Source of the DNA: Bacteroidales bacterium
Lineage (GTDB): Bacteria; Bacteroidota; Bacteroidia; Bacteroidales; P3
Assembly (NCBI GenBank): GCA_017618625.1
Contig: JAFZTV010000072.1
Location: forward strand, 1-20,956
Reading direction: 5' to 3'
DNA: 20,956 nucleotides
Shown here: one piece after another, positions 1,847-16,388 of the stretch
Numbering within the stretch: position 1 is the first letter of the stretch
How the letters are laid out: each line of letters starts with the position of its first letter
Translations under genes and position numbers: made by a program
Notes under the pieces: model-generated
Told to the model about the DNA's origin: nothing
The model's input: only the letters and a program-made list of their open reading frames with translations
Databases searched by the model: none

Positions 1847-1923
1847 GTGATTAGTGATTAGTGAATAGTGAATTGACAAATGACAACGCCTGACACTTAA
1901 AACTTACAGCTTAAAGCTAAACA
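1847..1923. repeat. Period-7 degenerate tandem repeat in the rsmD-purC spacer
   Basis: On the plus strand GTGATTA occurs at 1847-1853 and 1854-1860, followed by GTGAATA (1861-1867), GTGAATT (1868-1874), GACAAAT (1875-1881) and, in the same register, CTTAAAA (1896-1902), CTTACAG (1903-1909) and CTTAAAG (1910-1916). The next heptad, CTAAACA, contains the rsmD stop codon (plus-strand cta at 1917-1919). The phase is kept over eleven units even though the unit sequence changes. The order of blocks, read on the plus strand from the purC start, is the same as in the spacer at 10083-10139. Confidence 0.85.
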
Positions 1924-2462
1924 TCCACCTCTTTTGCGAAGAAGGTGAAATTCACCTTGCCGTAGTTGCGGTGCTGCCAGAAATAGGAGTGCTCCTCAAA
2001 CGAATACTCCTTCGGGTGTTCCAGGATAAGGATGCCATCGGGGTTGAGAAGGTCTTTTTCGAACACCATGTCGGGTAGCTGTGGGAGGGATTCGTGGGCG
2101 TAAGGTGGGTCGGCAAAGATGATGTCGAACTTCTTGTAGGCACGTTTGAGCAGGTCGAACACATCGGCTCTCACCACATGGAGGTTGTGAACATTGAGGC
2201 GGGCTGCCGACGACTTTATGAAGTCGGTGCAAGGGCCGTTGATATCGACAGCGGTGACATCCTTGGCTCCACGGGATACAAACTCGAAAGTGATGGAGCC
2301 CGTGCCGGCAAAGAGGTCCATGACGGAGCAGTCCTCGTAGTCGACGTAGTTGTTGAGAATGTTGAAAAGACCTTCCTTGGCCATGTCGGTGGTGGGCCGG
2401 ACAGGCAGGTTGGTCGGAGGGTTGAGCCTACGACCCTTGAGGGAACCGGAGATGATGCGCAC
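1917..2462 (-). CDS. rsmD: 16S rRNA (guanine(966)-N2)-methyltransferase RsmD
   Basis: The 181-residue protein begins MRIISGSLKGRRL, the typical RsmD opening. It has the SAM-binding motif I DLFAGTGSITFEF (about residues 49-61) and the catalytic motif IV FADPPY near residue 115, as in N2-guanine and N6-adenine methyltransferases. RsmD methylates G966 of 16S rRNA during 30S assembly. The start codon is GTG at 2462; a purine-rich stretch (AGGA) lies just upstream, and no in-frame ATG gives a sensible N-terminus. The gene follows DUF3822 by 12 bp, an arrangement I know from many Bacteroidales genomes. The stop codon lies inside the period-7 repeat array that fills the following spacer. Confidence 0.96.
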   Translation of the reverse strand: MRIISGSLKGRRLNPPTNLPVRPTTDMAKEGLFNILNNYVDYEDCSVMDLFAGTGSITFEFVSRGAKDVTAVDINGPCTDFIKSSAARLNVHNLHVVRADVFDLLKRAYKKFDIIFADPPYAHESLPQLPDMVFEKDLLNPDGILILEHPKEYSFEEHSYFWQHRNYGKVNFTFFAKEVDV

Positions 2463-2474
2463 CTGTCCTAGAAT

Positions 2475-3293
2475 TTAGAACACCAAGACATTCCTGTAAA
2501 CATGGATGTTTCGAAACTCTTCGTTGTTGCAAGTGAAGGGGTGCCCGGTGTAGAGTTTCACCTGCGGGAAATATTTGACGAACATGTCGTAAATCGTCTT
2601 GTCGATATCACCGCAAAGCCAGAGCGTAAGGGCGGTGTTGTCGATTCCAAGCGACTTGGCCAAAGTCAACGCCCTGTACATGACATCACCCTGCGTGGGG
2701 CACTCGTATGAGTTGGACAGTTGAAGCTGTCCGCCCGACGAGGCAACGACATCGCAGCATCCACGGCGCACGTTGAGCAGCATGACGGGGTCGCTTTGCT
2801 GGACAAACTCCGGCACAACGAATTTTGAATACTGACAACGAACCCTGATGCCGGGGAAGGTGATTTTGAAGGCGGAGACGGCTGTTGAATCGGCCGAGAA
2901 GACGACGTATGATTTCAGCAACTCGTTGTAGTCGCTGAAACAAGTGGTGCCCGACTTCGTGTTGCCGACCAATGAGAGATACTGCCGTTCGCGGCCTCTC
3001 TCGTAGAGATGCTCGGGAAGCCACGACGAGAGCTCGGTGGTGGCAATCAGTTCGGCCTCTTTGAAACCGAAAGTCATAATCTTCTTGTCGGCGAACAGGG
3101 ATTTGATGTCTGCCGCGATGGTGGCAATGGAAGCATTCGTGTCGAGTGCCACATCGCAATAATGGAGCAGATGTCGGTTGCCGGCGAAAATTGTGAACGA
3201 AAAGCCATCCGGCTTGAGCGAGATGGAAAGTTTCTTGTCGGCAGAACTGACCTCAGCAGTGTCCGCTATGTAGGTTTTAATTGTGTAGGCCAT
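2475..3293 (-). CDS. DUF3822 family protein
   Basis: The 272-residue product fits DUF3822, an uncharacterised Bacteroidota family usually found immediately before rsmD; here the gap is 12 bp. There is no signal peptide or membrane segment, so a cytosolic location is expected. Recognisable stretches are LSISLKPDGFSFTI near the N-terminus, the middle part with LLNVRRGCCDVVASSGGQLQLSNSY, and the C-terminal end containing LWLCGDIDKTIYDMF and NVLVF. The alternation of two similar alpha/beta halves resembles actin-like ATPase-fold proteins, but I see no convincing phosphate-binding motifs, so that is only a guess. The ATG at 3293 is the first in-frame start. No -7 box was found upstream, although a terminator for the preceding gene implies that a new transcript starts near here. 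Confidence 0.82.
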   Translation of the reverse strand: MAYTIKTYIADTAEVSSADKKLSISLKPDGFSFTIFAGNRHLLHYCDVALDTNASIATIAADIKSLFADKKIMTFGFKEAELIATTELSSWLPEHLYERGRERQYLSLVGNTKSGTTCFSDYNELLKSYVVFSADSTAVSAFKITFPGIRVRCQYSKFVVPEFVQQSDPVMLLNVRRGCCDVVASSGGQLQLSNSYECPTQGDVMYRALTLAKSLGIDNTALTLWLCGDIDKTIYDMFVKYFPQVKLYTGHPFTCNNEEFRNIHVYRNVLVF

Positions 3294-3325
3294 TTGTATT
3301 GATGCTTGATTTAAGACGGTGCACT

Positions 3326-3361
3326 ATAAAGAAAAGCCCCCGACGTAAGCAAATCGGGGGC
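3326..3361 (-). terminator. Intrinsic terminator after the 236-aa gene
   Basis: Read on the minus strand, GCCCCCGA (3361-3354) pairs with TCGGGGGC (3343-3336) in a perfect 8-bp GC-rich stem with a 10-base loop. It is followed by a T-rich tract (TTTTCTTTAT, 3335-3326). It begins about 20 bp after the stop codon of the 3381-4091 gene and precedes the DUF3822 start by 33 bp. Confidence 0.9.
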
Positions 3362-3380
3362 GTAGTTTGAACACATGTTA

Positions 3381-4091
3381 TTACTCGAAGTTGCCTTCGA
3401 TGATGGACTCGTCCATGCTTCCGAATTTCCAGCCGGGATATTTGTTGCCGGAGACGAGTTTGTCTTTCTTGTTGACGACAAGCTGACGGTCGCAGTCGCT
3501 CATGAGGCGGTCAATATCGACTTTGACCTCGACCACCGGGACGTTGAAGCCACCAGTGGACTCTTTCAAGCCGGCATGGATTTCAAACTCTTCGGTGGTT
3601 CCTTTGGGGTAAGGCAGGAAGCGGAGGTGGAGGATTTCCTCGTCGGTCATCTGACGCACAGAACCGTCGGCCAGGGTGATGGGCAGTTTGCCGTTTTCAC
3701 GGAGCTGCTTGATGGGGTTGACGAGGGTGTCCTTGCGAGCGATATAGCCCTTCTTGATGGCTTCAAGCTCGGAGATTTCCTCGAGGACAAAGTTGCTGTC
3801 CTGCGGGAATTTGTCGCGGAAGACGACCTTTGTGGTGATACGGAGGCTGTCCTCGTTGAGCAGACGGCCGAAAAGGGTGTCGAAATTACCGCAGTAGCAG
3901 TTGTAGGTCTGCTTGTAGGCTTCTTCGAGGGTACGGATGGCCCGGAGCTTTTCGGCGCAGGCTACGCCGCGTTTGCTGTATTCTTCGTCGAATTTCACAG
4001 GTTTGCTGATGCTCAGATAGAGCCAGACGCCGAGGCCTATCACAACGATGGCCAGGACGGCCTCAATAATGATTTTTACTGTTTTATTCAT
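3381..4091 (-). CDS. Uncharacterised membrane-anchored protein, 236 aa
   Basis: I do not recognise a named family. The protein has one N-terminal hydrophobic helix (about residues 7-28, KIIIEAVLAIVVIGLGVWLY) preceded by a lysine, and no lipobox cysteine or clear cleavage site. It is therefore predicted to be a single-pass inner-membrane protein with about 205 residues in the periplasm. The rest is charged and mainly helical at first, with CAEKLRAIRTLEEAYKQTY and YCGNFDTL near residues 45-75. The last third looks like a compact beta-rich domain ending with GNKYPGWKFGSMDESIIEGNFE. It has a -7 promoter match 46 bp upstream and a strong terminator 20 bp downstream, so it seems to be transcribed alone. 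Similar proteins of unknown function occur near DUF3822 in Bacteroidales, from memory. Confidence 0.8.
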   Translation of the reverse strand: MNKTVKIIIEAVLAIVVIGLGVWLYLSISKPVKFDEEYSKRGVACAEKLRAIRTLEEAYKQTYNCYCGNFDTLFGRLLNEDSLRITTKVVFRDKFPQDSNFVLEEISELEAIKKGYIARKDTLVNPIKQLRENGKLPITLADGSVRQMTDEEILHLRFLPYPKGTTEEFEIHAGLKESTGGFNVPVVEVKVDIDRLMSDCDRQLVVNKKDKLVSGNKYPGWKFGSMDESIIEGNFE

Positions 4092-4136
4092 TGTTTGATA
4101 TTTTATATTTCCTGATAAGATGCTCTAAAAGCAATG

Positions 4137-4144
4137 CAAAAATA
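4137..4144 (-). promoter_or_regulatory. Bacteroidota -7 box candidate for the 236-aa gene
   Basis: The minus strand reads TATTTTTG followed by C, a full match to TAnnTTTG. It lies about 46 bp before the ATG at 4091, leaving a 5' untranslated region of roughly 35-40 bases. No good TTTG -33 element was found at the usual distance. Confidence 0.5.
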
Positions 4145-4188
4145 CAAATAAAAGTTAATAAATAGGCTTCACTGGTATAAAGTTTTTT

Positions 4189-5676
4189 TCATTCTTGTTC
4201 GCGATGATGCAGAACAACGTGACAATCAAAGTTTTCTCGCAGGCGCTGAGCTATAAATTCGGCACAATACACAGAGCGATGTTGGCCGCCTGTGCAGCCG
4301 AAAGAGACCTGAAGATGCGAAAACTTGCGCTCGGTGTATTTCTTCACCGACTGTGACACCAACGCATACGCATGCTCAAGAAACTGCGTTACCGAGTCCT
4401 CTTTTTGCAGGAAGTCGATGACCGACGGGTCTTTGCCTGTGACGTTGCGATATTCTGGATAGCGGCCTGGGTTGGGCAGTGCACGGCAGTCGAAGATGAA
4501 TCCTCCGCCGTTGCCGGACGAATCTGTTGGAAGGCCTTTCTTGTACGAGAAACTGCCTACGGTGACGGTGAGCGTGTCGGAGGGAATGGTGGATGCCGAC
4601 GTGTTTTCCGACTGCTGACCGCCGACTGCCAACCGCGAGTTTATTATGGTGTCGAGAACCTGTCGTAGATGGGGAATGTCCAGCTCTTTTGGCAGTTTTT
4701 CCACCACGGTACGCAAATTCGTAACCGCAAGGGGTATGCTTTTTATGAAATACTCCTTGCGCTCGAAAAGGCCCCGGTAGCCGTAAGCACCCATGGCCTG
4801 AAGAATTCGGATGAGGACATAGGAGTAGAAACGTGCCTCAAACTGCGTGTTTTCCGACTGCCGGCTGCCTACCGCCAACTTGGAATAGGTGTCGATGTAA
4901 TGCCTGAGGAGTTCCTGTCTTATGGCTTCGGGAATCTCGGCCTTTGAGCTGTAGAGTAGCGATGCAACGTCGTATTGTGGTGCTCCACGGCGCGCACCTT
5001 GGTAATCGATGTAGTAGAGTTGTGACAGGTCACCTGTGTCCGCCTGCTGAGCGCTCACAACCATGATATTGCGGGTTTGGAAGTCGCGGTACATAAACGA
5101 GCCGCAGTCACCTGCAAGAAGATAGTCGATAAGGGTGTGGAAGTCGTTTTCAAGAAGCTGCTCGTCAAACGGGATGTAGAGGAGTTTCAGGAAGTGGTAC
5201 TTGAAATAGTTGAGGTCCCACTGTATGGCCTGGCTGTCGAAGTCGGGGCGCGGGTAGGCATGGGAGAAGTCGAGGTCGCGACAGCGTGTCTGTATGACTG
5301 CAAGGTCGGAAAGTACTTGCTTGTACAGCTGAAGTGTTTCTCTGTCAAATCCTTCGCCTCGCTGACGTTTGGCATAGAGGTAGGAGTATAAGGTTGTGTC
5401 GCCGAGGTCTTGCTGTAGGTATGTGCGACGGTCGTCGCTGACAGCATAAAGCTCTGGCACAGAGATGTGGCGTGCCAGCATCTCACGGGTATAGTAGAAA
5501 AAGGCTTCATTCTCTCTGACGTCGTCGTTGATGGCGGCTATACAGGTGATGTCGCCTGCCGTGAGTCGCAGGTATTTGCGGTTTGAGCCGTTGGCACCAA
5601 GCAGTGAGTGGCGTTCACAATCGACGCCTGCCCACCGACGAAAGAGGGCAAGTGCTGAAGATATGTCGTTTTCCAA
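4189..5676 (-). CDS. Phosphotransferase (APH/AmgK-like sugar kinase) fused to a RapZ C-terminal-like domain
   Basis: The 495-residue protein has two parts. Residues about 10-335 form an aminoglycoside-phosphotransferase-type kinase with the catalytic loop YRDFQTRN (196-203; the usual HxD histidine is Tyr, with Asp198 and Asn203 kept) and the metal-binding IDYQGA (223-228). Residues about 370-495 match the C-terminal domain of RapZ, with DCRALPNP (396-403) and GCTGGQHRS (460-468). The RapZ N-terminal P-loop domain is absent. AmgK-type kinases phosphorylate cell-wall amino sugars, and the RapZ C-terminal domain binds glucosamine-6-phosphate, so a wall-sugar recycling role is a reasonable inference. 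The start appears to be TTG at 5676; no in-frame ATG occurs before residue 66. Two near-identical stretches, LAVGSRQSENT (267-277) and LAVGGQQSENT (349-359), come from inserted period-7 repeats. Bactofilin lies 49 bp upstream. Confidence 0.88.
   Translation of the reverse strand: MENDISSALALFRRWAGVDCERHSLLGANGSNRKYLRLTAGDITCIAAINDDVRENEAFFYYTREMLARHISVPELYAVSDDRRTYLQQDLGDTTLYSYLYAKRQRGEGFDRETLQLYKQVLSDLAVIQTRCRDLDFSHAYPRPDFDSQAIQWDLNYFKYHFLKLLYIPFDEQLLENDFHTLIDYLLAGDCGSFMYRDFQTRNIMVVSAQQADTGDLSQLYYIDYQGARRGAPQYDVASLLYSSKAEIPEAIRQELLRHYIDTYSKLAVGSRQSENTQFEARFYSYVLIRILQAMGAYGYRGLFERKEYFIKSIPLAVTNLRTVVEKLPKELDIPHLRQVLDTIINSRLAVGGQQSENTSASTIPSDTLTVTVGSFSYKKGLPTDSSGNGGGFIFDCRALPNPGRYPEYRNVTGKDPSVIDFLQKEDSVTQFLEHAYALVSQSVKKYTERKFSHLQVSFGCTGGQHRSVYCAEFIAQRLRENFDCHVVLHHREQE
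4604..4638. repeat. In-frame period-7 repeat in the interdomain linker of the kinase-RapZ gene
   Basis: The plus strand shows five heptads in register: TTTTCCG (4604), ACTGCTG (4611), ACCGCCG (4618), ACTGCCA (4625) and ACCGCGA (4632). They encode most of LAVGGQQSENT at residues 349-359, between the kinase and the RapZ-like domain. The same sequence, with a few changes, occurs at 4850-4884. Confidence 0.85.
4850..4884. repeat. In-frame period-7 repeat inside the kinase domain
   Basis: Five heptads on the plus strand are in register: TTTTCCG (4850), ACTGCCG (4857), GCTGCCT (4864), ACCGCCA (4871) and ACTTGGA (4878). They encode LAVGSRQSENT at residues 267-277, between the helix ending HYIDTYS and the conserved FYSYVLIRILQAMGAYG segment. 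This is a second copy of the repeat at 4604-4638, in the same reading frame. Confidence 0.85.
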
Positions 5677-5725
5677 CTTTTGCGATTACGTTAATGCGTG
5701 AGCATCATCTGCTCGCACTCTGTTG

Positions 5726-6109
5726 TTACTCTGCGGTGTTTTGTTCGCCGTCGTTCTCTTTGCGCAGTTCGTCGAGCATACGGCAGGTACCCGAGAAGGC
5801 TGCACCGGGCTCTATGGCGAGCTTGTTGATAAGGATGTCGCCTTTGACAACGGCAGTCGAATGGAGCGTGAGGACCTCCTTGACAGATATGTTACCGTCA
5901 ACACGTCCAATGATGTTGGCGTTCTGGCAGACCACATTTCCTTTGACCTGTCCCGACTCACCGACGACAAGTTTGCCGTTGAGCTGGATGTTTCCGTCTA
6001 GACGGCCGTCGAGGCGGAAGTCGCCCTGTGCGGTGATGTCACCTTTAATCTGTGTTCCGTTGCTGATTGTGTTGACCGATGTGTTTTCCATTTCAAATGT
6101 TTTTGCCAT
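5726..6109 (-). CDS. Bactofilin (polymer-forming cytoskeletal protein)
   Basis: The 127-residue protein has the bactofilin domain: a run of short beta-strand repeats rich in G, V and I, for example GDITAQGDFRLDGRLDGNI, then LVVGESGQVKGNV, ANIIGRVDGNI and TAVVKGDILINKLAIEPG. These form the right-handed beta-helix that polymerises without nucleotides. The N-terminus (about 20 residues) and the charged C-terminal tail (ELRKENDGEQNTAE) are short, as usual. Bactofilins scaffold envelope enzymes and contribute to cell shape. It lies 70 bp after the PorW-like gene and 49 bp before the kinase-RapZ gene. The ATG at 6109 is the natural start. The spacer upstream contains an 8-bp repeat near the start and a period-7 block at the preceding stop codon. 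Confidence 0.94.
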   Translation of the reverse strand: MAKTFEMENTSVNTISNGTQIKGDITAQGDFRLDGRLDGNIQLNGKLVVGESGQVKGNVVCQNANIIGRVDGNISVKEVLTLHSTAVVKGDILINKLAIEPGAAFSGTCRMLDELRKENDGEQNTAE

Positions 6110-6116
6110 GATGAAA

Positions 6117-6182
6117 ATTATTTGATTATTTGATTGTATTACTGGTTAATTGTATTTCGTCAAATGTGTTTTCCGGCTGCTA
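6117..6182. repeat. Composite period-8 and period-7 repeat in the PorW-bactofilin spacer
   Basis: Near the bactofilin start ATTATTTG occurs twice (6117-6124, 6125-6132), followed by ATTGTATT at 6133 and again at 6149, all in an 8-bp register. At the other end TTTTCCG (6169-6175) and GCTGCTA (6176-6182) repeat the type seen in the kinase-RapZ gene and overlap the stop codon of the PorW-like gene (6180-6182). The TTTTCCG end is the same core found at 4604 and 4850. Confidence 0.65.
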
Positions 6183-8948
6183 ACGATAGTATTTCCTGAA
6201 GAACAGTCGGTAGGCTTCTACATTCTTGCGGTTGTAGAAGGTGGTGTAGTTCTGGGTGGATATTGGGAACACCTCGTAGTAGTCGCTGTCAAACTCGTTG
6301 AGCGGGCTTTCGGGCTGCTGTAGGTGGGTGTAGTATAGCATCGCTTCGGCTGCGTTCTTGAAGCGGTGTATGGTGACCATCTGCGTGGAGTCGGTAAACA
6401 TGAGTGCATTGACCTTGTAGCCGGCGTTCGAGTAGTACTGTGCATTGAAATCGGCAATGCGGTACTGGAACTCGGTGGCCCGTATCTTCTTGTCGTTGAC
6501 CAGGATGATGACGTAATGCTGAAGTGATTCTTTATATCTGAAATATAGTGCCTCGGCTGGAAGCTGCTCTTCTTCGGGCGGGGTTTCAGGCTCGAGGGTG
6601 CGTGGGGTGCGGCCTGTGGCAACGGTCTCTTCTTCGGGGGTGATGGTCTCTGCTGTCTCTGGTTCCTCGACGTATGCGTCGCCTTTAAGGTACTTGAGCT
6701 GCAGCTGCGCGAGCGGGACGATGGAGTCTGTCTTGTCGCTGACGGCTATGATATTTTCAAAGGCTGCGATGGCTTTCTCCTTCTCTCCTATCCTGGCGTA
6801 TGACATGGCTTTCCAGTAGTCGAACTTTACGAGCATGGGGTCGCCGGCAAAACTCTCTCGTGCCACTCCTGCCTGGTTGATAACCTCGTTGTAGCGACGT
6901 TTGCGGAACATGGCGTAAAGGTCCTCATATTCGTCCTTGACACGCTGCTCACGTCGTATAATCTCTTTGTAGTAATCCTCGTCGCGTATGAGGTTGGCGT
7001 AGTCGCTGTCGGGGAATCCCATGAGTATCATGTCTCTGTAGTAGTTGGCCTGAGGGGTGTTGCCCTGCTTGGTGTATATGCGGTAGAGCATGTAGAAGGC
7101 CTGCACAATCTCGTCGTTCTCTGGAAATTCGTTTGCCATACGCAGGTAGCACTCCAGTGCACGCGGCACATTGCCGATACCGTCGTAGTAGATATATCCG
7201 GCATTGAGCAGCGCGACGGCTATCTCGGCTCGCATGGAGTCTTTCTGCTCTATGGTGGTTGGAAGGTCTTTGGTGTAGTATGCTACGTTGTGCGGGTCGT
7301 TGGGGTCGGCTCCTCGGGGCTGTTTCTCCTCGGTGGAGGTTGTGTCGCTGTCGTCGGTCTCGGTGTCTGTCTGTGTCTCCTCTTCGGCCATCGCCAACAT
7401 GTTCATGCCCAGCAGGCCTTTCTTCGAGAGGAACCAGTAGTCTTCAAGTGTTCGCATGCCCCAACGCTGACGGAAGGTCTCCTTGCCTTTCTGCACGGTG
7501 TTGTGGTTGTAGAAATACCAGTCGCCGGTCAAGGTGTTCTGTGCCGCCTTGGTGTCTGATGCAATCTGGGCCAGCAGTTCGCGTTCTTTGGCCTCTTCCT
7601 CCTGTTTTTTGAGGTCTTCTATCTTCTTTCTTATAAGTGCGTCGCGCTCTGCTGCCGGCATCTCCGAAACAGCTATCAGGCTGTCGTTGCGGTCTATGAC
7701 TCGAGTGTACGAAACCAGGGCTGTAAGCACGTCGTACCTCGATTTAATCTCGCCATAGTGGGGATATTCACGTGTGATTATCTGCATGGCGGTGTCGTAG
7801 TAATTCTGCGAGAGGTCGTAGTTTTCATAGACGTCATACAGAACTTCGGCCAGTCTGAGGGCCGACTTGGCTTTCTGGGGCTGGTTCTTGGTCGAGACGG
7901 CCACCGACTGCTTGTAGCTGTCGCAGGCTTTCTTGGCGTTCTTCACCCCCATGTACATCTCGCCCATGGCATAGTATATCTGGTCGCGGTATTCCTCGTT
8001 CTTGCTCTCCTTGAGCATTCGGTTCAGCTGTTTCTCGAGCTTGGGGATGTCGGTGTGTTCCAAGTCGGCACAGGATGCAATGTTAAGGCGCGCATTGAAC
8101 TCCATCACATAGAGTTCGGTGTTCTTTATCGCTTTCTGGTAGTATTTGGTGGCGGTGGGTTTCTTGTTCAGCTTCTGATATATCTGAGCCATGATGAAAT
8201 ACAGGCGAGCCTTGGTTTCTCTGTCGTGGGTGGTCTCCAGGGCAAGCTTTATATATTCGACCGCCTTCTTGTAGCGTTCCTGCGGCAGGAGGCTCTCGAC
8301 CATAGCCATGTAAAGCTTCGAGTCGAGTTTGCCCGCAAAGGCTCCCTCTTTCATCTTCTGCACCAGCTGGTCAAGTTCCTGTTCGGCAACCATGTATTGC
8401 TTGTCGGCAGTGTGGCAGCGTGCCATGAGAATCTTTGCTTCGTCGCCTTCCTTGGTGCCGGCAAACTGGGCAGACATCATCTGGCAGGTGTTCTCGGCCG
8501 ACACATAGTCATGTTCGTAAAACGAGCCGTAGGAGGTCAGCATGTAGCATTTGCGGATATATGGCACATGTTCTTTGCCATACACAAAGATGCTGTGCTT
8601 CTTTATTCCCTTCACGCCTTTCTCTATGGCTCGGTCAAACTTGGGTTTTGCCGACATGGCCTCGGCGGTGGTTCCCAGCTTGTAAACGGGCAGAATCTGG
8701 GTGTAGTCGTCGTTCACCTTTTTGTTCAGGTCCTTCACTCCTTCTTTCAGGCTCTCGTTGCCGTTCCACCACACGTTGTAGTGTGCCGTGAGGTTGTGAT
8801 AGCGTATGTTGGCCCACTTGGCCTTGCTGGTCGAGCACGACTGCATGGTTAAAAGGGTAGAAAAGGCCAAAAGGATTAGAAGCGGAACGCACACAACGCG
8901 AGTCCCTTTCAACCCTCTGGAACCTTTATGACCGATTAACCCCAACAT
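6180..8948 (-). CDS. PorW/SprE-like TPR lipoprotein (gliding/type IX secretion family)
   Basis: The 922-residue protein has a signal sequence (hydrophobic residues about 19-34) ending at a likely lipidated Cys38 (MQSC, a loose lipobox). It is followed by RYHNLTAHYNVWWNGNESL, which resembles the start of mature PorW/SprE proteins. Several TPR-type helical hairpins follow (about residues 110-400 and 600-760), with charged low-complexity segments near 545 and 785-820. The C-terminal 110 residues (HYVIILVND, FNAQYYSNAGYKVNALMF, FYNRKNVEAY) match the family's end domain. SprE/PorW proteins are needed for gliding and type IX secretion in Flavobacterium and Porphyromonas; no other secretion gene is visible here, so the exact role is inferred. 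The ATG at 8948 lies 17 bp after ychF. The stop is followed by repeats and the bactofilin gene. Confidence 0.83.
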   Translation of the reverse strand: MLGLIGHKGSRGLKGTRVVCVPLLILLAFSTLLTMQSCSTSKAKWANIRYHNLTAHYNVWWNGNESLKEGVKDLNKKVNDDYTQILPVYKLGTTAEAMSAKPKFDRAIEKGVKGIKKHSIFVYGKEHVPYIRKCYMLTSYGSFYEHDYVSAENTCQMMSAQFAGTKEGDEAKILMARCHTADKQYMVAEQELDQLVQKMKEGAFAGKLDSKLYMAMVESLLPQERYKKAVEYIKLALETTHDRETKARLYFIMAQIYQKLNKKPTATKYYQKAIKNTELYVMEFNARLNIASCADLEHTDIPKLEKQLNRMLKESKNEEYRDQIYYAMGEMYMGVKNAKKACDSYKQSVAVSTKNQPQKAKSALRLAEVLYDVYENYDLSQNYYDTAMQIITREYPHYGEIKSRYDVLTALVSYTRVIDRNDSLIAVSEMPAAERDALIRKKIEDLKKQEEEAKERELLAQIASDTKAAQNTLTGDWYFYNHNTVQKGKETFRQRWGMRTLEDYWFLSKKGLLGMNMLAMAEEETQTDTETDDSDTTSTEEKQPRGADPNDPHNVAYYTKDLPTTIEQKDSMRAEIAVALLNAGYIYYDGIGNVPRALECYLRMANEFPENDEIVQAFYMLYRIYTKQGNTPQANYYRDMILMGFPDSDYANLIRDEDYYKEIIRREQRVKDEYEDLYAMFRKRRYNEVINQAGVARESFAGDPMLVKFDYWKAMSYARIGEKEKAIAAFENIIAVSDKTDSIVPLAQLQLKYLKGDAYVEEPETAETITPEEETVATGRTPRTLEPETPPEEEQLPAEALYFRYKESLQHYVIILVNDKKIRATEFQYRIADFNAQYYSNAGYKVNALMFTDSTQMVTIHRFKNAAEAMLYYTHLQQPESPLNEFDSDYYEVFPISTQNYTTFYNRKNVEAYRLFFRKYYR

Positions 8949-8965
8949 ATCAACAAAAAAACATC

Positions 8966-10066: not shown

Positions 10067-10082
10067 ATCTTGATTGTTGTCT

Positions 10083-10139
10083 GTGAATCGTGATTAGTGA
10101 TTAGACAAATGGTACTTTATAACAACTTGAAACTTAGAA
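10083..10139. repeat. Period-7 degenerate tandem repeat in the DUF5715-ychF spacer
   Basis: The plus strand has GTGAATC (10083-10089), GTGATTA (10090-10096 and 10097-10103) and GACAAAT (10104-10110) in register. Further on come CTTGAAA (10126-10132) and CTTAGAA (10133-10139); the last overlaps the stop codon of the DUF5715 gene (10134-10136). Block order (GTGATTA units, GACAAAT, then CTT units at the stop) is the same as at 1847-1923. The two spacers separate unrelated genes. Confidence 0.82.
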
Positions 10140-11111: not shown

Positions 11112-11114
11112 GTT

Positions 11115-11154
11115 GTTAATGCGTTATTGCGTTAATGTGTTATTGTGTTAGTAA
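11115..11154. repeat. Period-8 tandem repeat upstream of the DUF5715 gene
   Basis: On the plus strand GTTAATGC (11115), GTTATTGC (11123), GTTAATGT (11131), GTTATTGT (11139) and GTTAGTAA (11147) follow each other without gaps. The units alternate, so the array is also a 16-bp repeat with about two copies. It ends three bases before the TTG start codon. A short TTGAAAC/TTAAATT remnant lies by the preceding stop codon at 11170. Confidence 0.85.
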
Positions 11155-11169
11155 CTGAACGATTGAAAC

Positions 11170-12102
11170 TTAAATTTCCTTTTCAATCAAGTAAGTGTTT
11201 CTGGTCGAGGAGTTTCGGCAAACCAGCTCGCCGATGAATCCGGCCAGGAAAAGGACCATTCCTATCAGGGTGAAGAACATGGACAGGAAGAACCACACGC
11301 TGCGGGTCAGGGCTATGATGTGTGCCAGTCTCAACACAATGACCACCACCAACGCCACAAAGCCGAACAGGAAGGCGACACTGCCGATGAGTCCGAAGAA
11401 ATGCATCGGCTGCTTCCCGAACTTCGACATAAACATGATACTCATCAGGTCCAGATAGCCGTTCACAAAGCGGTCCATTCCGAATTTCGTCACCCCGAAC
11501 TCCCTCTTTCTGTGCTGCACCACCTTCTCCCCTATCTTCTTGAATCCCGCCCACTTGGCTATCACTGGAATATACCTGTGCATCTCGCCGTAAACCTCTA
11601 TCGATTTAACAACATCCTTCCTGTAAGCCTTCAAGCCGCAGTTGAAGTCGTGCAGCTTTATGCCGCTCATCTTGCGCGTTGTCCAGTTGAAGAACTTCGA
11701 CGGGATGTTCTTCGCCAGCTTCGAGTCATAGCGTTTTTTCTTCCATCCGCTCACAAGATCGTAGCCTTCCTCTTTTATCATGCGGTACAGCTCAGGCACC
11801 TCGTCGGGGCTGTCCTGCAGGTCGGCATCCATGGTTATCACCACATCGCCTTGAGCCACTCCGAATCCAACGTTCAGTGCTGCCGATTTCCCGTAGTTCC
11901 TGCGGAATTTCACTCCCCTGTAGCGTGGGTTGGCGTCATGCAGTCCTTCCACAACCGACCAAGAGCCGTCATTGCTTCCGTCGTCAACCATGACCACCTC
12001 GTAGTCAAAGTGGTTTTCCTCCATCACACGGTCAATCCACTTGGCCAGGTGAGGCAGCGACTCCGCCTCGTTATACAAAGGAACTATAATCGAAATATCC
12101 AT
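11170..12102 (-). CDS. GT2 glycosyltransferase, polyprenyl-phosphate sugar transferase type
   Basis: The 310-residue protein is a GT-A-fold family 2 glycosyltransferase. Landmarks are IIVPLYNEAESL at the N-terminus, VDDGSNDGS (about 39-47), RRNYGKSAALNVGF (67-80) and the metal-binding DADLQD (92-97). Two C-terminal membrane helices (about 235-258 and 269-291) follow, with the active site expected on the cytosolic side. This architecture is that of DPM1/ArnC/GtrB-like enzymes, which move a sugar from a nucleotide donor to undecaprenyl or dolichyl phosphate. Donor and final polymer are unknown. The start is ATG 12102; the longer frame upstream is only open sequence running through repeats into the preceding gene. 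It follows a DUF4199 membrane protein, a pairing I know from other Bacteroidales. Confidence 0.93.
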   Translation of the reverse strand: MDISIIVPLYNEAESLPHLAKWIDRVMEENHFDYEVVMVDDGSNDGSWSVVEGLHDANPRYRGVKFRRNYGKSAALNVGFGVAQGDVVITMDADLQDSPDEVPELYRMIKEEGYDLVSGWKKKRYDSKLAKNIPSKFFNWTTRKMSGIKLHDFNCGLKAYRKDVVKSIEVYGEMHRYIPVIAKWAGFKKIGEKVVQHRKREFGVTKFGMDRFVNGYLDLMSIMFMSKFGKQPMHFFGLIGSVAFLFGFVALVVVIVLRLAHIIALTRSVWFFLSMFFTLIGMVLFLAGFIGELVCRNSSTRNTYLIEKEI

Positions 12103-12138
12103 ACTTTGAATGTTTATATGTTTTCTATTGATAAGCTT

Positions 12139-12166
12139 ACTTGAAACTAAAAACTTGAAACTATTT
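12139..12166. repeat. Period-7 repeat in the DUF4199-glycosyltransferase spacer
   Basis: Four heptads lie in register on the plus strand: ACTTGAA (12139 and 12153), ACTAAAA (12146) and ACTATTT (12160). The last overlaps the stop codon of the DUF4199 gene (plus-strand cta at 12161-12163). The rest of the spacer towards the glycosyltransferase start is AT-rich and has the TGTTTATATG motif related to the 15-bp unit at 14661. Confidence 0.75.
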
Positions 12167-12697
12167 ATCTCGCCCTGTGCGGACACGCACATCCGCCTTC
12201 TCGGTCCTGAAAAAAAGTGCTCCGAAGAAAGTCACTATTATCGACGTCAGAAAAGTGTTCACAAACCCGAACATCAAGGCCCACATTCCTGGGTTCAGTG
12301 CCGCCAGATACCCCTCTGTCTGCGAGTCGTCGGTCTTGAATCGCTGGGCATAGAGCTCGGTCATTTCAGGGTACAGCACTCCGCAGTAGAGCCATACGAA
12401 CAGTCCATATAGCACGGCAGCCACAAGTCCTGTTCCAAGTCCCATAAGCAGCAGCTCTTTCATGGTCACTTTCCCATCCGGCAACGACCGTCTGTAAAAA
12501 TACATCGACACCACAATCCCCACCACAAGCAGGCCGTCTTTCCCCAGGTCTGCCGGGGTTGCGCATGGTGCTCCGGACCAATGTCTGACCAGCAAGTACA
12601 GCGAGAGCACAAGTCCCGAGAGGGCTCCCCAGCGGAGGTATGCCAGCCGGTAGTTGCCGTGAATCTCTGACTTATATCTTCTGATAATGTTTCCCAT
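12161..12697 (-). CDS. DUF4199 domain membrane protein
   Basis: The protein (178 residues from ATG 12697; a GTG two codons earlier at 12703 is possible) has four predicted membrane helices: about residues 21-38, 50-66, 76-98 and 135-160. This helix pattern, the basic N-terminus (RRYKSEIHGNY) and the position just before a GT2 glycosyltransferase fit the DUF4199 family of Bacteroidota. Function is unknown; by association it may serve lipid-linked sugar transfer. It is the first gene after the aspS terminator and has a -7 box 32 bp before the ATG, so it probably opens the envelope gene cluster that continues to the kinase-RapZ gene. The short C-terminal tail (EKADVRVRTGRDK) is basic and cytosolic. 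Confidence 0.83.
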   Translation of the reverse strand: MGNIIRRYKSEIHGNYRLAYLRWGALSGLVLSLYLLVRHWSGAPCATPADLGKDGLLVVGIVVSMYFYRRSLPDGKVTMKELLLMGLGTGLVAAVLYGLFVWLYCGVLYPEMTELYAQRFKTDDSQTEGYLAALNPGMWALMFGFVNTFLTSIIVTFFGALFFRTEKADVRVRTGRDK

Positions 12698-12728
12698 ACG
12701 CACGTGCGATAGTTGTAATAATAAACTG

Positions 12729-12736
12729 CAAATATA
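12729..12736 (-). promoter_or_regulatory. Bacteroidota -7 box candidate for the DUF4199 cluster
   Basis: The minus strand reads TATATTTG followed by C, a full TAnnTTTG match, 32 bp before ATG 12697. A TTTG lies nearby but too close to be a -33 element. The position, between the aspS terminator and the first gene of the next cluster, supports it. Confidence 0.55.
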
Positions 12737-12822
12737 CGCAAATTATTGTGTTCCGACAGGTCATTTATGAACTACTAATCAACAATTTTTCAGGGGTGTG
12801 TTAATCTCTTATCTGTCTGCTC

Positions 12823-12860
12823 TGAAAAAAGAAAAAGCAGCCTTGTTTTCCAGGCTGCTT
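12823..12860 (-). terminator. Intrinsic terminator after aspS
   Basis: On the minus strand AGCAGCCT (12860-12853) pairs with AGGCTGCT (12844-12837) around an 8-base loop, followed by TTTTTCTTTTTTC (12836-12824). The hairpin starts 26 bp after the aspS stop. On the plus strand the stem is followed by TTTCTTTT, so it could work in both directions, but no plus-strand gene points into it. The remaining 180-bp spacer to the next gene holds this hairpin and the -7 box at 12729. Confidence 0.93.
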
Positions 12861-12885
12861 TCTTTTGGTTCAGGATATGACTGCG

Positions 12886-14637
12886 TCAGGGTTTCAGGTC
12901 TATGTGCAGTTCCTCCAGCTGTTCTTTGGCTATCGGTGAGGGGCTTCCGCTCATGACATCGCGTCCACTGTTGTTCTTGGGGAAGGCAATGAAGTCGCGT
13001 ATTGAATCCACACCGCCGAAAATTGAGCAGAGTCTGTCAAATCCGAAGGCAAGTCCTGCATGTGGTGGAGCTCCGTAGGTGAAGGCATCCATCAGGAATC
13101 CAAACTGGGCGTATGCGCTCTCGTCTGTAAACCCGAGTGTGTGGAACATCTTGTTCTGCAGCTGACGGTCGTGTATTCTTATGGAGCCGCCTCCCACCTC
13201 TACTCCGTTGATTACTATGTCGTATGCGTTGGCACGTATTTCTCCCCAGCGGTTGGGGTCGTCCAGCAGTGTCTCGTCCTCTGGCTTGGGTGCTGTGAAT
13301 GGGTGGTGCATAGCATAGTAGCGCTGGGTCTCGTCGTCCCATTCCAGCAATGGGAAATCGACAACCCACAGCGGAGCATATTTCTGTGGGTCGCGGAGTC
13401 CTAGACGGCTGCCCATCTCAAGTCTGAGGGCACAGAGCTGCACTCGGGACTTCATCGGCTCTCCGCAAAGCAGTAGCATGAGGTCTCCCGGCTTGGCTCC
13501 GAATTTGTTGGCTATTGCCTTCAGCTCCTCCTGGCCATAGAACTTATCTACCGACGACTTGAATGTTCCGTCGGCATTGTATTTGACATATACCATTCCG
13601 CCGGCTCCTACCTGCGGACGTTTCACAAACTCTGTGAGCTCGTCAAGCTGCTTGCGCGTGTATTCAGCACAGCCTTCCGCACAGATTCCCACCACAAGTG
13701 GTGCGTTGTCAAACAGTCCAAAGCCGTGATTTTTAACTACATCATTGACCTCTACGAACTCCATTCCAAAGCGTTTGTCGGGTTTGTCGCTGCCGTAGAG
13801 TCTCATTGCATCATGCCACGAAATACGCTCAAACTCAGCGAATTCAAGTCCTTTCATCTCCTTGAAAAGGTGCTTGGCTAACCCCTCGAACATCTGCAGC
13901 ACATCCTCCTGCTCCACAAACGACATCTCGCAGTCAATCTGTGTGAACTCGGGCTGACGGTCGGCTCTGAGGTCTTCATCGCGGAAACAGCGTACAATCT
14001 GGAAGTATCTGTCCATTCCGGCCACCATAAGCAGCTGCTTGTACTGCTGTGGACTTTGTGGCAGTGCGTAGAATTCACCGGGGTTCATGCGGCTGGGCAC
14101 CACAAAGTCGCGTGCTCCTTCTGGTGTCGATTTGATGAGCATCGGGGTCTCTACCTCGAGGAAGTTCTGCGAGCTGAGGTAGTTGCGCACCAGCATAGCC
14201 ATCTGATGTCTCAGTATGAGGTTGTTCTTCACCGGATTGCGACGGATGTCCAGATAGCGGTATTTCATACGCAGGTCATCTCCTCCGTCGCTCTGGTCTT
14301 CTATGGTGAAAGGCGGCACTTTCGACTCGTTGAGCACGGTGAGCTTGCTTACCTGAATCTCAATCTCTCCGGTCGGTATCTTGGTGTTCTTTGATGAACG
14401 TTCAATGACGGTGCCTGTGACCTGCAGCACATACTCTCGGCCTAGTTTGCGAGCCTGCTCACAGAGTGCTGCATCCGTCTCCATGTTGAAGGCAAGCTGT
14501 GTTATGCCGTAGCGGTCACGAAGGTCTATGAAGGTCATACCGCCTAGGTCGCGGCTACGCTGGAGCCATCCGCAGAGGGTCACCTGCTGTCCGACATTCG
14601 ATATATTCAGTTCCCCACAAGTATTTGTACGATACAT
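12886..14637 (-). CDS. aspS: Aspartyl-tRNA synthetase (bacterial type)
   Basis: The 583-residue length suits the bacterial-type AspRS, which includes the GAD insertion domain. The N-terminal OB-fold anticodon-binding domain (about 1-105) contains [26 protein letters not shown]. Class II motif 2 is [18 protein letters not shown] (about 218-235) and motif 3 is [15 protein letters not shown] near the C-terminus. It charges tRNA-Asp with aspartate in the cytosol. Whether it also charges tRNA-Asn cannot be told from sequence alone. The ATG at 14637 follows rluB by 101 bp of repeat-rich spacer, and a strong terminator stands 26 bp after the stop, marking the end of the glnS-pheT-rluB-aspS run. Confidence 0.98.
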
Positions 14638-14660
14638 AGTTGTGATTGTTTATGTTAGAT

Positions 14661-14738
14661 GTTGATATGTTTAATGTTGATATGTTTAATATTGAAAAGG
14701 TAACTGACCACTCAAAACTTAAAACTCAAAACTCACTA
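14661..14738. repeat. 15-bp and period-7 repeats in the rluB-aspS spacer
   Basis: Near the aspS start the 15-mer GTTGATATGTTTAAT is perfectly duplicated (14661-14675, 14676-14690), with a partial copy before it (TATGTTAGAT). At the other end CTCAAAA (14711), CTTAAAA (14718), CTCAAAA (14725) and CTCACTA (14732) are in 7-bp register and end directly before the rluB stop codon at 14739-14741. Confidence 0.85.
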
Positions 14739-15758
14739 TCACACCATCTTCAAAAATCCAACCTCTTTGTCTGTAAGTTCACGGTAGCGTCCACGCGGTA
14801 GGTCCTTCTTGGTGAGCCCCGCAAAGATGACGCGGTCAAGTTTGTGTACCTCATAGCCGAGGTGCTCGAATATGCGTCTAACTATGCGGTTGCGCCCTGA
14901 ATGGAGTGCAACACCCACCACACGTTTGTCGTTGAATCCGTCTGCATACTGCACATCATCGACCTTTATCGGGCCGTCTTCAAGTTCTATCCCCTCAAGC
15001 ATCTTTTTCATGTCCTCGCGGGTGACGGCTTTGTTCAGCTCAACCTGATATACCTTATAAACCATGGTCGATGGATGCGTCAGTTTGCGTGCCAGCTCTC
15101 CGTCGTTGGTAAAAAGTAGGAGTCCCGTGGTGTTGCGGTCCAGACGACCTACAGGATAGATTCGCTCACGGCAGGCACCGTCTATAAGCATCATGACGGT
15201 CTTGCGCTCCTGTGGGTCATCCACAGTGGTGATATACCCTTTAGGCTTGTTCATGAGGAAGTAGCGTTTGGCCTCTGCGCTGAGGGTCTCTCCACCGTAT
15301 GACACAACGTCACCGGGTTTGACCTGATAACCCATCTGTGTGACAATCTGTCCGTTGACTTTCACACTTCCTGCTTCTATAAGTCGGTCTGCTTCACGAC
15401 GGCTGCAAATGCCCGCGTTGGCAATATATTTGTTCAGACGTACCGTCTCCTTGTCTGTTCTACGAGCCGCTGTTCTCCTTACTGCCGGTCTCTCTCCGCT
15501 GGCAGCCCTTCCTGCAGGCTTACGTTCAAACGTTCTGCGTTCTCCCCTCTCCTGCTTTTCTCCAAAGCTCTTCTTTGCAGGCCTACGTTCAAACGATTTA
15601 CGTTCTCCCCTCCCCTGCTTTTCTCCAAAGCTCTTCTTTGCAGGCCCATCCTCTTTCTTGAAGGTACGCTTCTGCTGCTCCGACGGCTTTCCGTCAGTCT
15701 TTGGACGCCTTGTAGTGCGTCCCGGTTCACTCCTGCGTGGTTTATTCTCCTTGTTCAC
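14739..15758 (-). CDS. rluB: Pseudouridine synthase, RluB/RsuA type, with basic repeat-bearing N-terminal extension
   Basis: Residues about 105-339 are a complete RsuA/RluB-family enzyme: an S4 RNA-binding domain (RLNKYIANAGICSRREADRL, about 107-126), then FLMNKPKGYITT, and the catalytic GRLDRNTTGLL with Asp206. RluB modifies U2605 of 23S rRNA in E. coli; RluB/RluE/RluF specificity is not certain here. Residues 1-104 are an unusual Lys/Arg/Ser/Gly-rich, presumably disordered tail, including two 21-residue copies that start with KKSFGEKQ (41-61 and 62-82). The start is GTG at 15758, with no ATG nearby in frame. It follows the unrecognised 25-residue-repeat gene by 56 bp and its stop abuts a period-7 block. 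Confidence 0.92.
   Translation of the reverse strand: MNKENKPRRSEPGRTTRRPKTDGKPSEQQKRTFKKEDGPAKKSFGEKQGRGERKSFERRPAKKSFGEKQERGERRTFERKPAGRAASGERPAVRRTAARRTDKETVRLNKYIANAGICSRREADRLIEAGSVKVNGQIVTQMGYQVKPGDVVSYGGETLSAEAKRYFLMNKPKGYITTVDDPQERKTVMMLIDGACRERIYPVGRLDRNTTGLLLFTNDGELARKLTHPSTMVYKVYQVELNKAVTREDMKKMLEGIELEDGPIKVDDVQYADGFNDKRVVGVALHSGRNRIVRRIFEHLGYEVHKLDRVIFAGLTKKDLPRGRYRELTDKEVGFLKMV
15513..15638 (-). repeat. 63-bp tandem duplication inside the rluB N-terminal region
   Basis: Two consecutive 63-bp (21-codon) copies encode residues 41-61 and 62-82. The stretch CTGCTTTTCTCCAAAGCTCT starts at 15552 and again at 15615 on the plus strand, exactly 63 bp apart, and DNA identity remains high across most of the copy, which suggests a recent duplication. 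It enlarges a basic, RNA-binding-like tail. Confidence 0.9.
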
Positions 15759-15784
15759 TATATGATTGTTGTTATGTTTACCAA

Positions 15785-15819
15785 ACTTAAAACTTAAAAT
15801 TTACAGCTTAAAACTCAAA
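15785..15819. repeat. Period-7 repeat at the end of the 152-aa gene
   Basis: Five heptads in register on the plus strand: ACTTAAA (15785 and 15792), ATTTACA (15799), GCTTAAA (15806) and ACTCAAA (15813). The last contains the stop codon of the unrecognised gene (plus-strand tca at 15815-15817). The rest of the spacer to rluB shows no period-7 pattern. Confidence 0.82.
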
Positions 15820-16273
15820 ATCTCATCTTATACGGAAAAGCAGCGTCCGACTCCTGCTTTTTTCTGATGTCTGCAACCTCCTTGGCTAGTCTCAGCAGTA
15901 TTTCAAGTTTCATCTGCTTGAGCCACGAGATAGCCACCTCGTCTTTCCTGCAGGCCATGCAGAACATGAAGTTCGCACGGTGCAGATTCTTCAGCACCCA
16001 CGCTCTCGCAGCATCTTCTCCGTCAATGGCATGGCTGAGTAGTCCCAGCCAGTGGTAGCCATGTTTCACAAGCCATGCTTCGGCATCCTCGTCTTCCTGT
16101 ATGAAATTGCAGAAGGCTGCAAGTTCTGGATAGCCCGCGTTGACCAGCCAGTTGAAGAAATCGTCCTTGCCGGTAAAAGCCTGCTGCAAAGCCAGCAGCA
16201 CCTTCACATCATATTTCAGCAGGCCTAGTTGCATTTCCTTTTGCGTTAATTTGCTCTTGTGTTTGCGATTCAA
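15815..16273 (-). CDS. Unrecognised protein built of four 25-residue helical repeats
   Basis: I do not recognise a named family. From the TTG at 16273 the product has 152 residues; the ATG at 16234 (139 residues, MQLGLLKYDVK) is an alternative start. There is no signal peptide or membrane helix. Four tryptophans stand exactly 25 residues apart (W42, W67, W92, W117), each followed by Leu or Val and preceded by an acidic or Ala-rich segment (DDFFNWL, DEDAEAWL, DAARAWV, DEVAISWL). Each repeat also has aromatic or Leu positions in the following helix. This suggests an alpha-helical solenoid-like scaffold for protein-protein contact. It sits between pheT and rluB on the same strand, perhaps co-transcribed. 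Similar proteins exist in other Bacteroidales, from memory. Confidence 0.78.
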   Translation of the reverse strand: MNRKHKSKLTQKEMQLGLLKYDVKVLLALQQAFTGKDDFFNWLVNAGYPELAAFCNFIQEDEDAEAWLVKHGYHWLGLLSHAIDGEDAARAWVLKNLHRANFMFCMACRKDEVAISWLKQMKLEILLRLAKEVADIRKKQESDAAFPYKMRF

Positions 16274-16292
16274 ATTAGTTTCTCAACTCTAA

Positions 16293-16325
16293 GTTCATTC
16301 TGACTTCACACGGACTTCATACGGA
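16293..16325. repeat. Three 11-bp tandem repeats in the pheT downstream spacer
   Basis: GTTCATTCTGA (16293-16303), CTTCACACGGA (16304-16314) and CTTCATACGGA (16315-16325) follow each other. The 115-bp spacer shows no promoter box or terminator hairpin that I can support. The 11-bp period recalls the 11-bp subunits of the array at the right end, but the sequence is different. Confidence 0.6.
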
Positions 16326-16388
16326 GTTTGTGGACTGTTTTTACCTTTCAGACGGGTGTCGTGGTGCCTTATGACTCCAAACAGATTG

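What the first reader, a model, noticed from the sequence alone, without database searches (positions are those of the whole stretch)
1847..15819. A dispersed family of period-7 repeats sits on stop codons at gene junctions
In six spacers (1847-1923, 6169-6182, 10126-10139, 12139-12166, 14711-14738, 15785-15819) a block of degenerate heptads overlaps or abuts the stop codon of the upstream gene. The genes concerned are unrelated. Unit sequence drifts but the 7-bp phase is kept, which is unlike ordinary random AT-rich spacer. Heptameric short tandem repeats are known from cyanobacteria and similar tracts are familiar to me from Bacteroidota intergenic DNA, but a preference for the stop-codon side of operon spacers is, to my knowledge, not a described rule. 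They may be slippage products, remains of a targeted insertion process, or elements acting on mRNA 3' ends inside operons.
Basis: partly seen in the sequence, partly recalled or inferred. Interest (0 to 1): 0.72.

Follow-up and report, generated by a model that had tools for sequence, protein, structure and literature searches.

The report
Polarised heptad arrays at gene edges
In a lineage of gut Bacteroidales the gaps between genes carry tandem repeats of 7 or 8 bases that often begin exactly at the preceding gene's stop codon, run in the opposite strand orientation before start codons, and are built from different repeat units in related species; heptad repeats with a similar placement are known from other bacteria, so this is a striking variant and not a new kind of element.

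Summary
In the window four of the six named blocks are tandem arrays, one is two degenerate units, one (6169-6182) has none. In 983 spacers from samples of 11 congeneric genomes, arrays occur mainly with periods 7 (167), 8 (116) and 11 (93); 9 is minor (37); shuffles sum to 1-2 per period. Heptads begin within 2 nt of the stop in 36 of 138 co-directional cases (random placement 9.7; start codon 8); held-out DNA 8 of 49 versus 3.0. Near stops the coding strand is mostly G/T-rich, before starts A/C-rich (p 3e-9; replicated for heptads). The gene's stop is often unit one. Orthologous junctions carry unrelated units although the proteins end alike. Heptads also invade protein loops. Best reading: a lineage-wide process making 7/8-base arrays, limited by selection at gene edges; leader openness may favour A/C before starts; the stop-side polarity is unexplained. 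The same polarity is published for G-rich heptads of Xanthomonas and Nostoc (PMC4692102), so the rule is not undescribed; its A+T-rich form argues against G-quadruplexes as the general cause.

The parts
15783..15820 (-). heptad array (TTTTAAG type, G/T form on the coding strand) that contains the stop codon 15815-15817 of the 152-aa gene
   Evidence: TRF score 48; lag scan 13.5
14710..14735 (-). heptad array (TTTTGAG/TTTTAAG, G/T form) beginning 3 nt after the stop codon of the pseudouridine synthase gene
   Evidence: TRF score 45; lag scan 14.0; Pfam
12139..12162 (-). weak heptad array (TTTCAAG/TTTTTAG) at the stop codon 12161-12163 of the DUF4199 gene
   Evidence: TRF score 34; lag scan 7.0 at 12144-12162; Pfam
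11115..11150 (-). start-side octad array (ATTAACGC type, A/C form) before the DUF5715 gene
   Evidence: TRF 44 for period 8 and 58 for period 16; lag scan 18.0
10083..10104 (-). start-side heptad array (CTAATCA type, A/C form) before the YchF gene
   Evidence: lag scan 10.0; TRF 10090-10104
   Evidence: TRF 38; lag scan 11
1895..1921 (-). heptad array (CTTTAAG/CTGTAAG/TTTTAAG, G/T form) over the stop codon 1917-1919 of the Cons_hypoth95 methyltransferase gene
   Evidence: TRF 32 at 1896-1918; lag scan 10.0
1847..1886 (-). start-side heptad array (CTAATCA/CTATTCA, A/C form) before the SAICAR synthetase gene
   Evidence: TRF 43 at 1847-1871; lag scan 20.5
16288..16328 (-). 11-mer array, the second period class
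   Evidence: lag scan 12.5; TRF 16302-16325
20794..20953 (-). 11-mer arrays (three stretches), second period class
   Evidence: lag scan 14.5, 21.5, 11.5; TRF 20793-20953

Best explanation
These are products of a lineage-wide process that makes tandem arrays with a step of 7 or 8 bases (11-mers are a second class), probably replication slippage helped by copying between spacers. It acts all over the genome, and purifying selection leaves arrays mainly between genes. Shown here: the periods, the roughly 30-fold spacer bias of heptads over coding sequence, the boundary at the stop codon, the strand polarity, species-specific units, turnover at conserved junctions, and invasion of coding loops. 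Inferred: arrays reach exactly to the stop because free sequence begins there, and a unit that carries TAA, TGA or TAG can take the stop codon in as its first unit; they keep a few bases off the start codon because the leader is constrained. Partly shown: the A/C strand is kept on the mRNA before starts because the opposite orientation would fold and hide the start. Not explained: why the G/T strand is preferred right after stops; candidates are polar growth of the array, avoidance of C-rich RNA that loads Rho, or stop codons in every frame.
For: Periods 7, 8 and 11 against shuffles: replicated in 62. Stop edge: 36 of 138 against 9.7, 8 of 49 against 3.0. Sharp boundary: lag-7 identity 0.23-0.45 in the last 14 coding bases, 0.55-0.65 on the stop codon, 0.68-0.90 after it (31 arrays of 7 genomes); only 5 of 43 stop-adjacent arrays extend into the last 7 coding bases. 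Stop codon in phase: same triplet one unit on in 10 of 43, two units on in 15 of 43, other lags 0-3. Turnover with conserved protein ends; closer pair. Dialects: split-half similarity exceeds every between-genome value in 6 of 7 genomes. Neighbouring spacers share words more often than distant ones in 5 of 5 genomes. Coding sequence: 78 heptad and 24 octad arrays in 2.0 Mb against 2 and 2 after codon shuffling, 32.6-fold rarer per base for heptads than in spacers. Start-side orientation: reversing would change mean fold energy from -2.60 to -6.69 kcal/mol, 55 of 70 less structured as they stand.
Against: No mutation was observed; strains of one species could not be compared. Slippage alone explains neither the shared unit spectrum of distant spacers nor the choice of 7, 8 and 11 over 5, 6 or 10. 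The stop-side polarity has no demonstrated cause (reversal has no net effect on folding, n=64). Octads are nearly confined to co-directional spacers (87 of 751 spacers against 2 of 114 convergent and 3 of 118 divergent), which a purely neutral process would not predict. No gradient of unit homogeneity was seen. One inverted array pair is conserved but for one base between two species in which other junctions turned over.
Confidence: 0.55

Rival explanations
1. Selected elements of polycistronic mRNA: a G/T-form, C-poor array with stop triplets behind the stop codon, and an A/C-form, G-poor leader before the next start that keeps the ribosome site open; together a cistron separator.
For: Octads avoid convergent and divergent spacers (same direction in 62). 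Start-side orientation keeps the start open. Stop triplets in all three frames in 35 of 47 stop-side heptad arrays as oriented, 23 if reversed; octads 13 of 17 against 2. Arrays in 117 of 362 co-directional spacers of 60-250 nt without a TAnnTTTGC motif against 3 of 73 with it.
Against: About two thirds of the motif-free junctions lack arrays. The promoter-motif contrast did not replicate (36 of 99 against 6 of 23, p 0.47). Heptads per spacer do not differ significantly between spacer types (p 0.099 and 0.24) and were as dense in convergent spacers of the held-out set. Arms of one spacer pair no better than swapped arms. Units are replaced between sister species and arrays enter coding loops.
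Confidence: 0.25
2. Dispersed composite element: stop-side heptads, a G+C-rich core and start-side octads are copied together from junction to junction, as a REP-like or other mobile sequence.
For: In G012 several spacers repeat the order heptads - GGCTGACGC core - octads; AAGTGGCTGACGCG with up to 1 mismatch has 103 places in G012 (backward control 9), 50 in G052 (3), 29 in G046 (3). G041 and G001 share dispersed G+C-rich cores. Neighbouring spacers share words.
Against: Many arrays have no core, no fixed ends and no fixed length. In most of the 119 genomes the G012 core is about as rare as its control. No transposase or target-site duplication was looked for.
Confidence: 0.15
3. Chance or annotation artefact: A+T-rich spacers look periodic, or arrays with stop codons in every frame merely end the reading frames that run into them.
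For: The units do carry stop codons, and the point is made for TAACTGA repeats in PMC4679880 (passage). 5 of 43 stop-adjacent arrays do extend into the coding end.
Against: Shuffles give almost no arrays. Periodicity mostly begins at the stop codon itself. Orthologs end at or within a few residues of the same place with different arrays behind them.
Confidence: 0.03

Closest known systems
G-rich heptameric repeats GGGAATC and GGGGA(C/T)T of Xanthomonas and Nostoc (PMC4692102; passages and sections 13 and 16 read)
   Same: Intergenic degenerate heptads; near stop codons on the coding strand, near start codons on the non-coding strand, including overlap with stops; length and sequence variation between close species
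   Different: Here the units are A+T-rich and cannot form G-quadruplexes of that type, they differ from species to species, octads and 11-mers accompany them; no direct repeats of GGGAATC or GGGGATT in 2.33 Mb
TAACTGA direct repeats of Beggiatoaceae, Cyanobacteria and five Bacteroidetes (PMC4679880; abstract, section 12 and passages read)
   Same: Heptads before start codons in one orientation; one set behind a stop in the reverse orientation; stops in all frames; some intergenic regions with other heptads
   Different: One fixed unit there; no TAACTGA direct repeat in 2.33 Mb here; main site here is the stop edge for heptads
Cyanobacterial STRR heptanucleotide repeats (Calothrix; name recalled, mentioned in PMC4692102)
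   Same: Several heptad families in intergenic DNA
   Different: Position and polarity relative to genes not compared here
Heptanucleotide repeats of the P6b stem in the Nostoc tRNA-Leu intron (recalled; PMC4476775 seen as abstract in a listing)
   Same: Degenerate heptads with the complement on a second arm
   Different: A structured intron stem; here arms of one spacer do not pair better than swapped arms

Membership tests
Heptameric intergenic simple repeats (STRR / long SSR type) | Tandem units of 7 bases in excess over chance, mainly outside genes | tested here: met
   167 heptad arrays in 983 spacers against shuffle sum of about 1; 32.6 times denser than in CDS
Heptameric intergenic simple repeats (STRR / long SSR type) | Unit number differs among strains of one species | not testable with these tools
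   one genome per species is held; species pairs only
G-quadruplex heptads (GGGAATC type) | Runs of three or more G per unit | tested here: not met
   listed units lack them as a rule; no GGGAATC or GGGGATT direct repeats in 2.33 Mb
G-quadruplex heptads (GGGAATC type) | Coding strand near stops, non-coding strand near starts for the G-rich strand | tested here: met
   G/T form 38 of 46 within 5 nt of stops, A/C form 31 of 38 within 15 nt of starts; held-out 14 of 15 and 9 of 11
TAACTGA repeats | Unit TAACTGA in direct repeat | tested here: not met
   0 in 2.33 Mb and in the window
REP / BIME or MITE-like mobile element | Defined palindromic unit with fixed ends | tested here: inconclusive
   recurring G+C-rich cores in some genomes, arrays without core or fixed ends elsewhere
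REP / BIME or MITE-like mobile element | Filled and empty sites, target-site duplication | not tested
   no strain pairs available
Hairpin-forming intercistronic element | Arms of the same spacer pair better than arms of different spacers | tested here: not met
   106 array spacers: own pairing weaker by 0.58 kcal/mol on average, p 0.033; G085 (11 spacers) leans the other way
Known structured RNA | Match to an Rfam family at gathering score | tested here: not met
   0 matches in the window

The most novel reading that the evidence does not exclude
The polarity is a general property of bacterial 7/8-base arrays and not of G-quadruplexes: in distant phyla the C-poor strand of the array reads away from the nearest gene edge. 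That would point to a directional array-building process that works from, or up to, the coding/non-coding boundary, with the stop codon itself serving as first unit, and to a separate 11-base class that favours divergent spacers.
Probability: 0.2. Interest if true: 0.8.

Novelty: new variant of a known kind. Interest (0 to 1): 0.55.

Why it matters
Heptad arrays have been noted in several bacterial groups without an accepted cause. Here the published edge-and-strand rule holds with A+T-rich, species-specific units, which argues against G-quadruplexes as its general reason. A genus of about 120 held species, some with an estimated several hundred arrays each (extrapolated from samples; one sampled genome had none of period 7 or 8) and with visible turnover between sisters, is a good system for asking why 7 and 8, why at gene edges, and whether cells use the result in operon mRNA.

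Tried and rejected
Hairpin or translational-coupling model (stop-side arm pairs with the start-side arm of its own spacer): rejected as a general rule. Gradient of unit homogeneity as a sign of the growing end: none (p 0.10-0.77). Array invades the gene end and supplies a new stop: explains a minority (5 of 43). 'Period not divisible by 3' as sufficient reason: rejected, since 4, 5, 10 and 13 give 3 to 14 arrays in all 11 genomes together. Operon-only element marked by lack of a promoter motif: strong in the first set, not replicated, left open. Convergent spacers as a test between mRNA function and boundary polarity: 8 of 12 arrays outward, divergent 5 of 7, too few. Polarity outside the genus: 33 arrays in 16 loci, stop half 11 G/T and 9 A/C, start half 2 and 8, p 0.12. 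Exceptions inside the genus: G037 stop-half heptads (2 G/T, 7 A/C) and G041 stop-half octads (1 and 6). Limits: my gene caller is home-made, and starts are less certain than stops, so start-edge counts may be too low. Dropped before counting: arrays that are runs of period 1-3, spacers under 20 or over 600 nt, spacers with N; sequences under 8 kb (77 of 81 used, window included). Literature searches on Bacteroidetes or Bacteroidales spacer repeats gave 0 papers; some searches gave listings, from which two papers were opened. One search was a script error, repeated.
Full report
SETTING. The window's main genes lie on the minus strand. No genome is held for it; the closest loci (L001-L006) are Bacteroidales or Bacteroidetes MAGs, several of them labelled rumen, deer or goat. 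Pfam gives SAICAR synthetase, a Cons_hypoth95 methyltransferase, YchF, DUF5715, a family 2 glycosyltransferase, DUF4199, a class II tRNA synthetase, a pseudouridine synthase, no family for the 152-aa gene, and an APH-RapZ fusion for ten proteins submitted. The shorter name AspRS is recalled. The congeneric set is the 120 genomes grouped with G001, the genome of L001; by the AspRS gene G069 is nearest to the window (86%), then G041 (81%).

OBSERVATION. Tandem Repeats Finder and a lag-based scan agree on heptad arrays at or near 1847-1886, 1895-1921, 14710-14735 and 15783-15820. TRF gives one at 12139-12162 that is weak in the lag scan. Start-side arrays lie at 10083-10104 (heptads), 6117-6135 and 11115-11150 (octads), and 11-mers at 16288-16328 and 20794-20953. 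Four of six blocks stand, one is marginal, one is absent.

PERIODS. In 983 spacers (144.6 kb) from 1.93 Mb of samples of 11 genomes, arrays with score >=10 number 167 (k=7), 116 (k=8), 93 (k=11) and 37 (k=9). Periods 4, 5, 6, 10, 12 and 13 give 3 to 14 each. Dinucleotide shuffles give 0 to 1.3 per genome and period. G101 has no 7- or 8-base arrays but 15 of period 11; G062 has few of any (2, 1 and 5). Held-out stretches of G041 and G069 (0.40 Mb, 235 spacers) give 59, 20 and 15 for periods 7, 8 and 11 against 0.0, 0.7 and 0.3. Seventy-seven sequences from across Bacteroidota, the window included, show weaker peaks: 39, 23 and 21 against 1.5, 2.0 and 0.5, and 15 against 0.5 for period 9.

POSITION. 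Of 138 heptad arrays in co-directional spacers 36 begin within 2 nt of the stop (random placement 9.7 +- 2.7; 0 of 5000 permutations); 8 end within 2 nt of the start. Within 10 nt both edges are enriched (stop 55, start 42, random 30.2). Octads: 13 of 108 at the stop against 4.6, start 7. 11-mers: 1 of 33. Held out: heptads 8 of 49 against 3.0, start 2; octads 2 of 19 against 1.3, not significant. Lag-7 identity is 0.23-0.45 in the last 14 coding bases, 0.55-0.65 on the stop codon and 0.68-0.90 after it (31 arrays of 7 genomes). Five of 43 stop-adjacent arrays reach clearly into the last 7 coding bases. The same stop triplet recurs one unit later in 10 of 43 and two units later in 15 of 43, at other lags in 0-3; held out 3 and 2 of 13, other lags 0-1.

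POLARITY. Within 5 nt of a stop 38 heptad arrays are G/T-rich on the coding strand and 8 A/C-rich; within 15 nt of a start 7 and 31 (p 3e-9). Octads: 15 and 2, then 4 and 28 (p 3e-7). Held-out heptads: 14 and 1, then 2 and 9 (p 1.6e-4); octads 2 and 1, then 0 and 6 (p 0.08). Exceptions are G037 for stop-half heptads and G041 for stop-half octads. Outside the genus the direction is the same but not significant (33 arrays, p 0.12). Turning start-side arrays round would fold the start region (mean -2.60 to -6.69 kcal/mol; 55 of 70 less structured as they stand, 12 more); turning stop-side arrays has no net effect (n=64, p 0.99). The start side thus has a plausible selective reason; the stop side has none that I could show. 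Stop-side arrays carry more stop triplets as oriented than reversed, but this follows from the same strand asymmetry and cannot be separated from it here.

SPACER TYPE. Per kb, heptads: co-directional 1.43, convergent 0.72, divergent 0.52; octads 1.12, 0.15, 0.17; 11-mers 0.34, 0.67, 1.62. By spacers with an array, the octad bias is significant (p 0.0004 and 0.001), the heptad bias is not (p 0.099 and 0.24), and 11-mers favour divergent spacers (24 of 118 against 27 of 751). In the held-out set heptads were as dense in convergent spacers (5 in 2.2 kb), octads were 19 co-directional, 0 convergent, 1 divergent, and 11-mers again favoured divergent ones. Avoidance of spacers with a promoter-like TAnnTTTGC was strong at first (3 of 73 against 117 of 362) and did not replicate (6 of 23 against 36 of 99).

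TURNOVER AND DIALECTS. Behind the 152-aa gene the window has TTTTAAG-type heptads, G069 GGTTTAAAA-like 9-base units and G041 TACACC octads, right after a conserved protein end. Behind the 922-aa gene the window has no stop-side array, whereas L001 has 131 bases (18.7 units) of AAGTAAG-type heptads beginning at the stop codon. For G023 and G066 (96% over 3.2 kb around AspRS) 12 syntenic rows were listed, two of them the same convergent spacer; several spacers are unrelated, and one inverted heptad pair differs by a single base. Unit spectra are more alike within than between genomes in 6 of 7 genomes (G023 is the exception). One 21-base heptad pattern with up to 3 mismatches has 0 to 255 places per genome in 41 genomes, 29 with at least one; its backward control is itself a heptad family, with 260 places in G002. 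Spacers less than 4 kb apart share 12-base words more often than spacers of other stretches: G001 2.3 against 1.3%, G041 4.0 against 1.2, G069 9.4 against 2.2, G009 2.7 against 2.0, G085 3.5 against 1.2.

CODING SEQUENCE. 2.0 Mb of called CDS hold 78 heptad and 24 octad arrays, 2 and 2 after codon shuffling; periods 4, 5, 10, 11 and 13 give 2 to 4. Of the 78, 6 lie within 30 nt of the gene end and 5 within 30 nt of its start. Heptads are 32.6 times denser in spacers. In the APH-RapZ fusion the window has two heptad-like loops, and L001 has GGTCACA-type heptads in two loops of the same protein; in the alignments of L002-L004 these loops are missing, and L005 has a loop of its own. The process is therefore not tied to stop codons; gene ends are where it is tolerated and where its limit shows.

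MECHANISM. I favour a mutational process with a 7/8-base step, filtered by selection at gene edges, with the orientation before starts kept by the need for an open leader. The evidence is comparative; no mutation was observed. Selected elements of operon mRNA keep real support from the octads. Composite modules of G012 keep a spreading element possible. Pairing of the two arms of a spacer is not supported.

LITERATURE. PMC4692102 (passages, sections 13 and 16 read) describes G-rich heptads with the same edge and strand preference in Xanthomonas and Nostoc, and repeats an older idea that the polymerase contact length favours 7-base slippage. PMC4679880 (abstract, section 12 and passages read) describes TAACTGA repeats. 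In what I read, neither treats A+T-rich species dialects, octads or the 11-mer partition. Searches that found no Bacteroidetes-specific account. The library lacks most subscription journals.

Noticed in passing
window 4608-4636 and 4854-4869; L001 17138-17203 and 17327-17401: The APH-RapZ fusion gene has heptad-derived loops inside its coding sequence, at different places and with different units in the window and in L001.
   Followed up: partly
L187, L189, L190 (G101); L195 (G062); L227, L230 (G023): 11-base arrays lie in the middle of divergent spacers, often as two adjoining inverted arms, and favour divergent over co-directional spacers.
   Followed up: partly
G012 spacers in L202, L203, L207, L209; also G052 and G046: A G+C-rich core AAGTGGCTGACGCG sits between stop-side heptads and start-side octads in several G012 spacers; 103 places in G012 with up to 1 mismatch (control 9), 50 in G052, 29 in G046.
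   Followed up: partly
L225 behind the gene 5930-6838, and its ortholog in L246: An inverted pair of heptad arrays around a G+C-rich core is identical but for one base in G023 and G066, while other junctions of the pair have turned over.
   Followed up: no
window 15513-15646: A 63-bp tandem repeat (2.1 copies) in the N-terminal, low-complexity part of the pseudouridine synthase gene.
   Followed up: no
G002 and G062 coding sequences: More heptad arrays inside called coding sequence than in the other genomes (19 in 175 kb and 12 in 88 kb).
   Followed up: no
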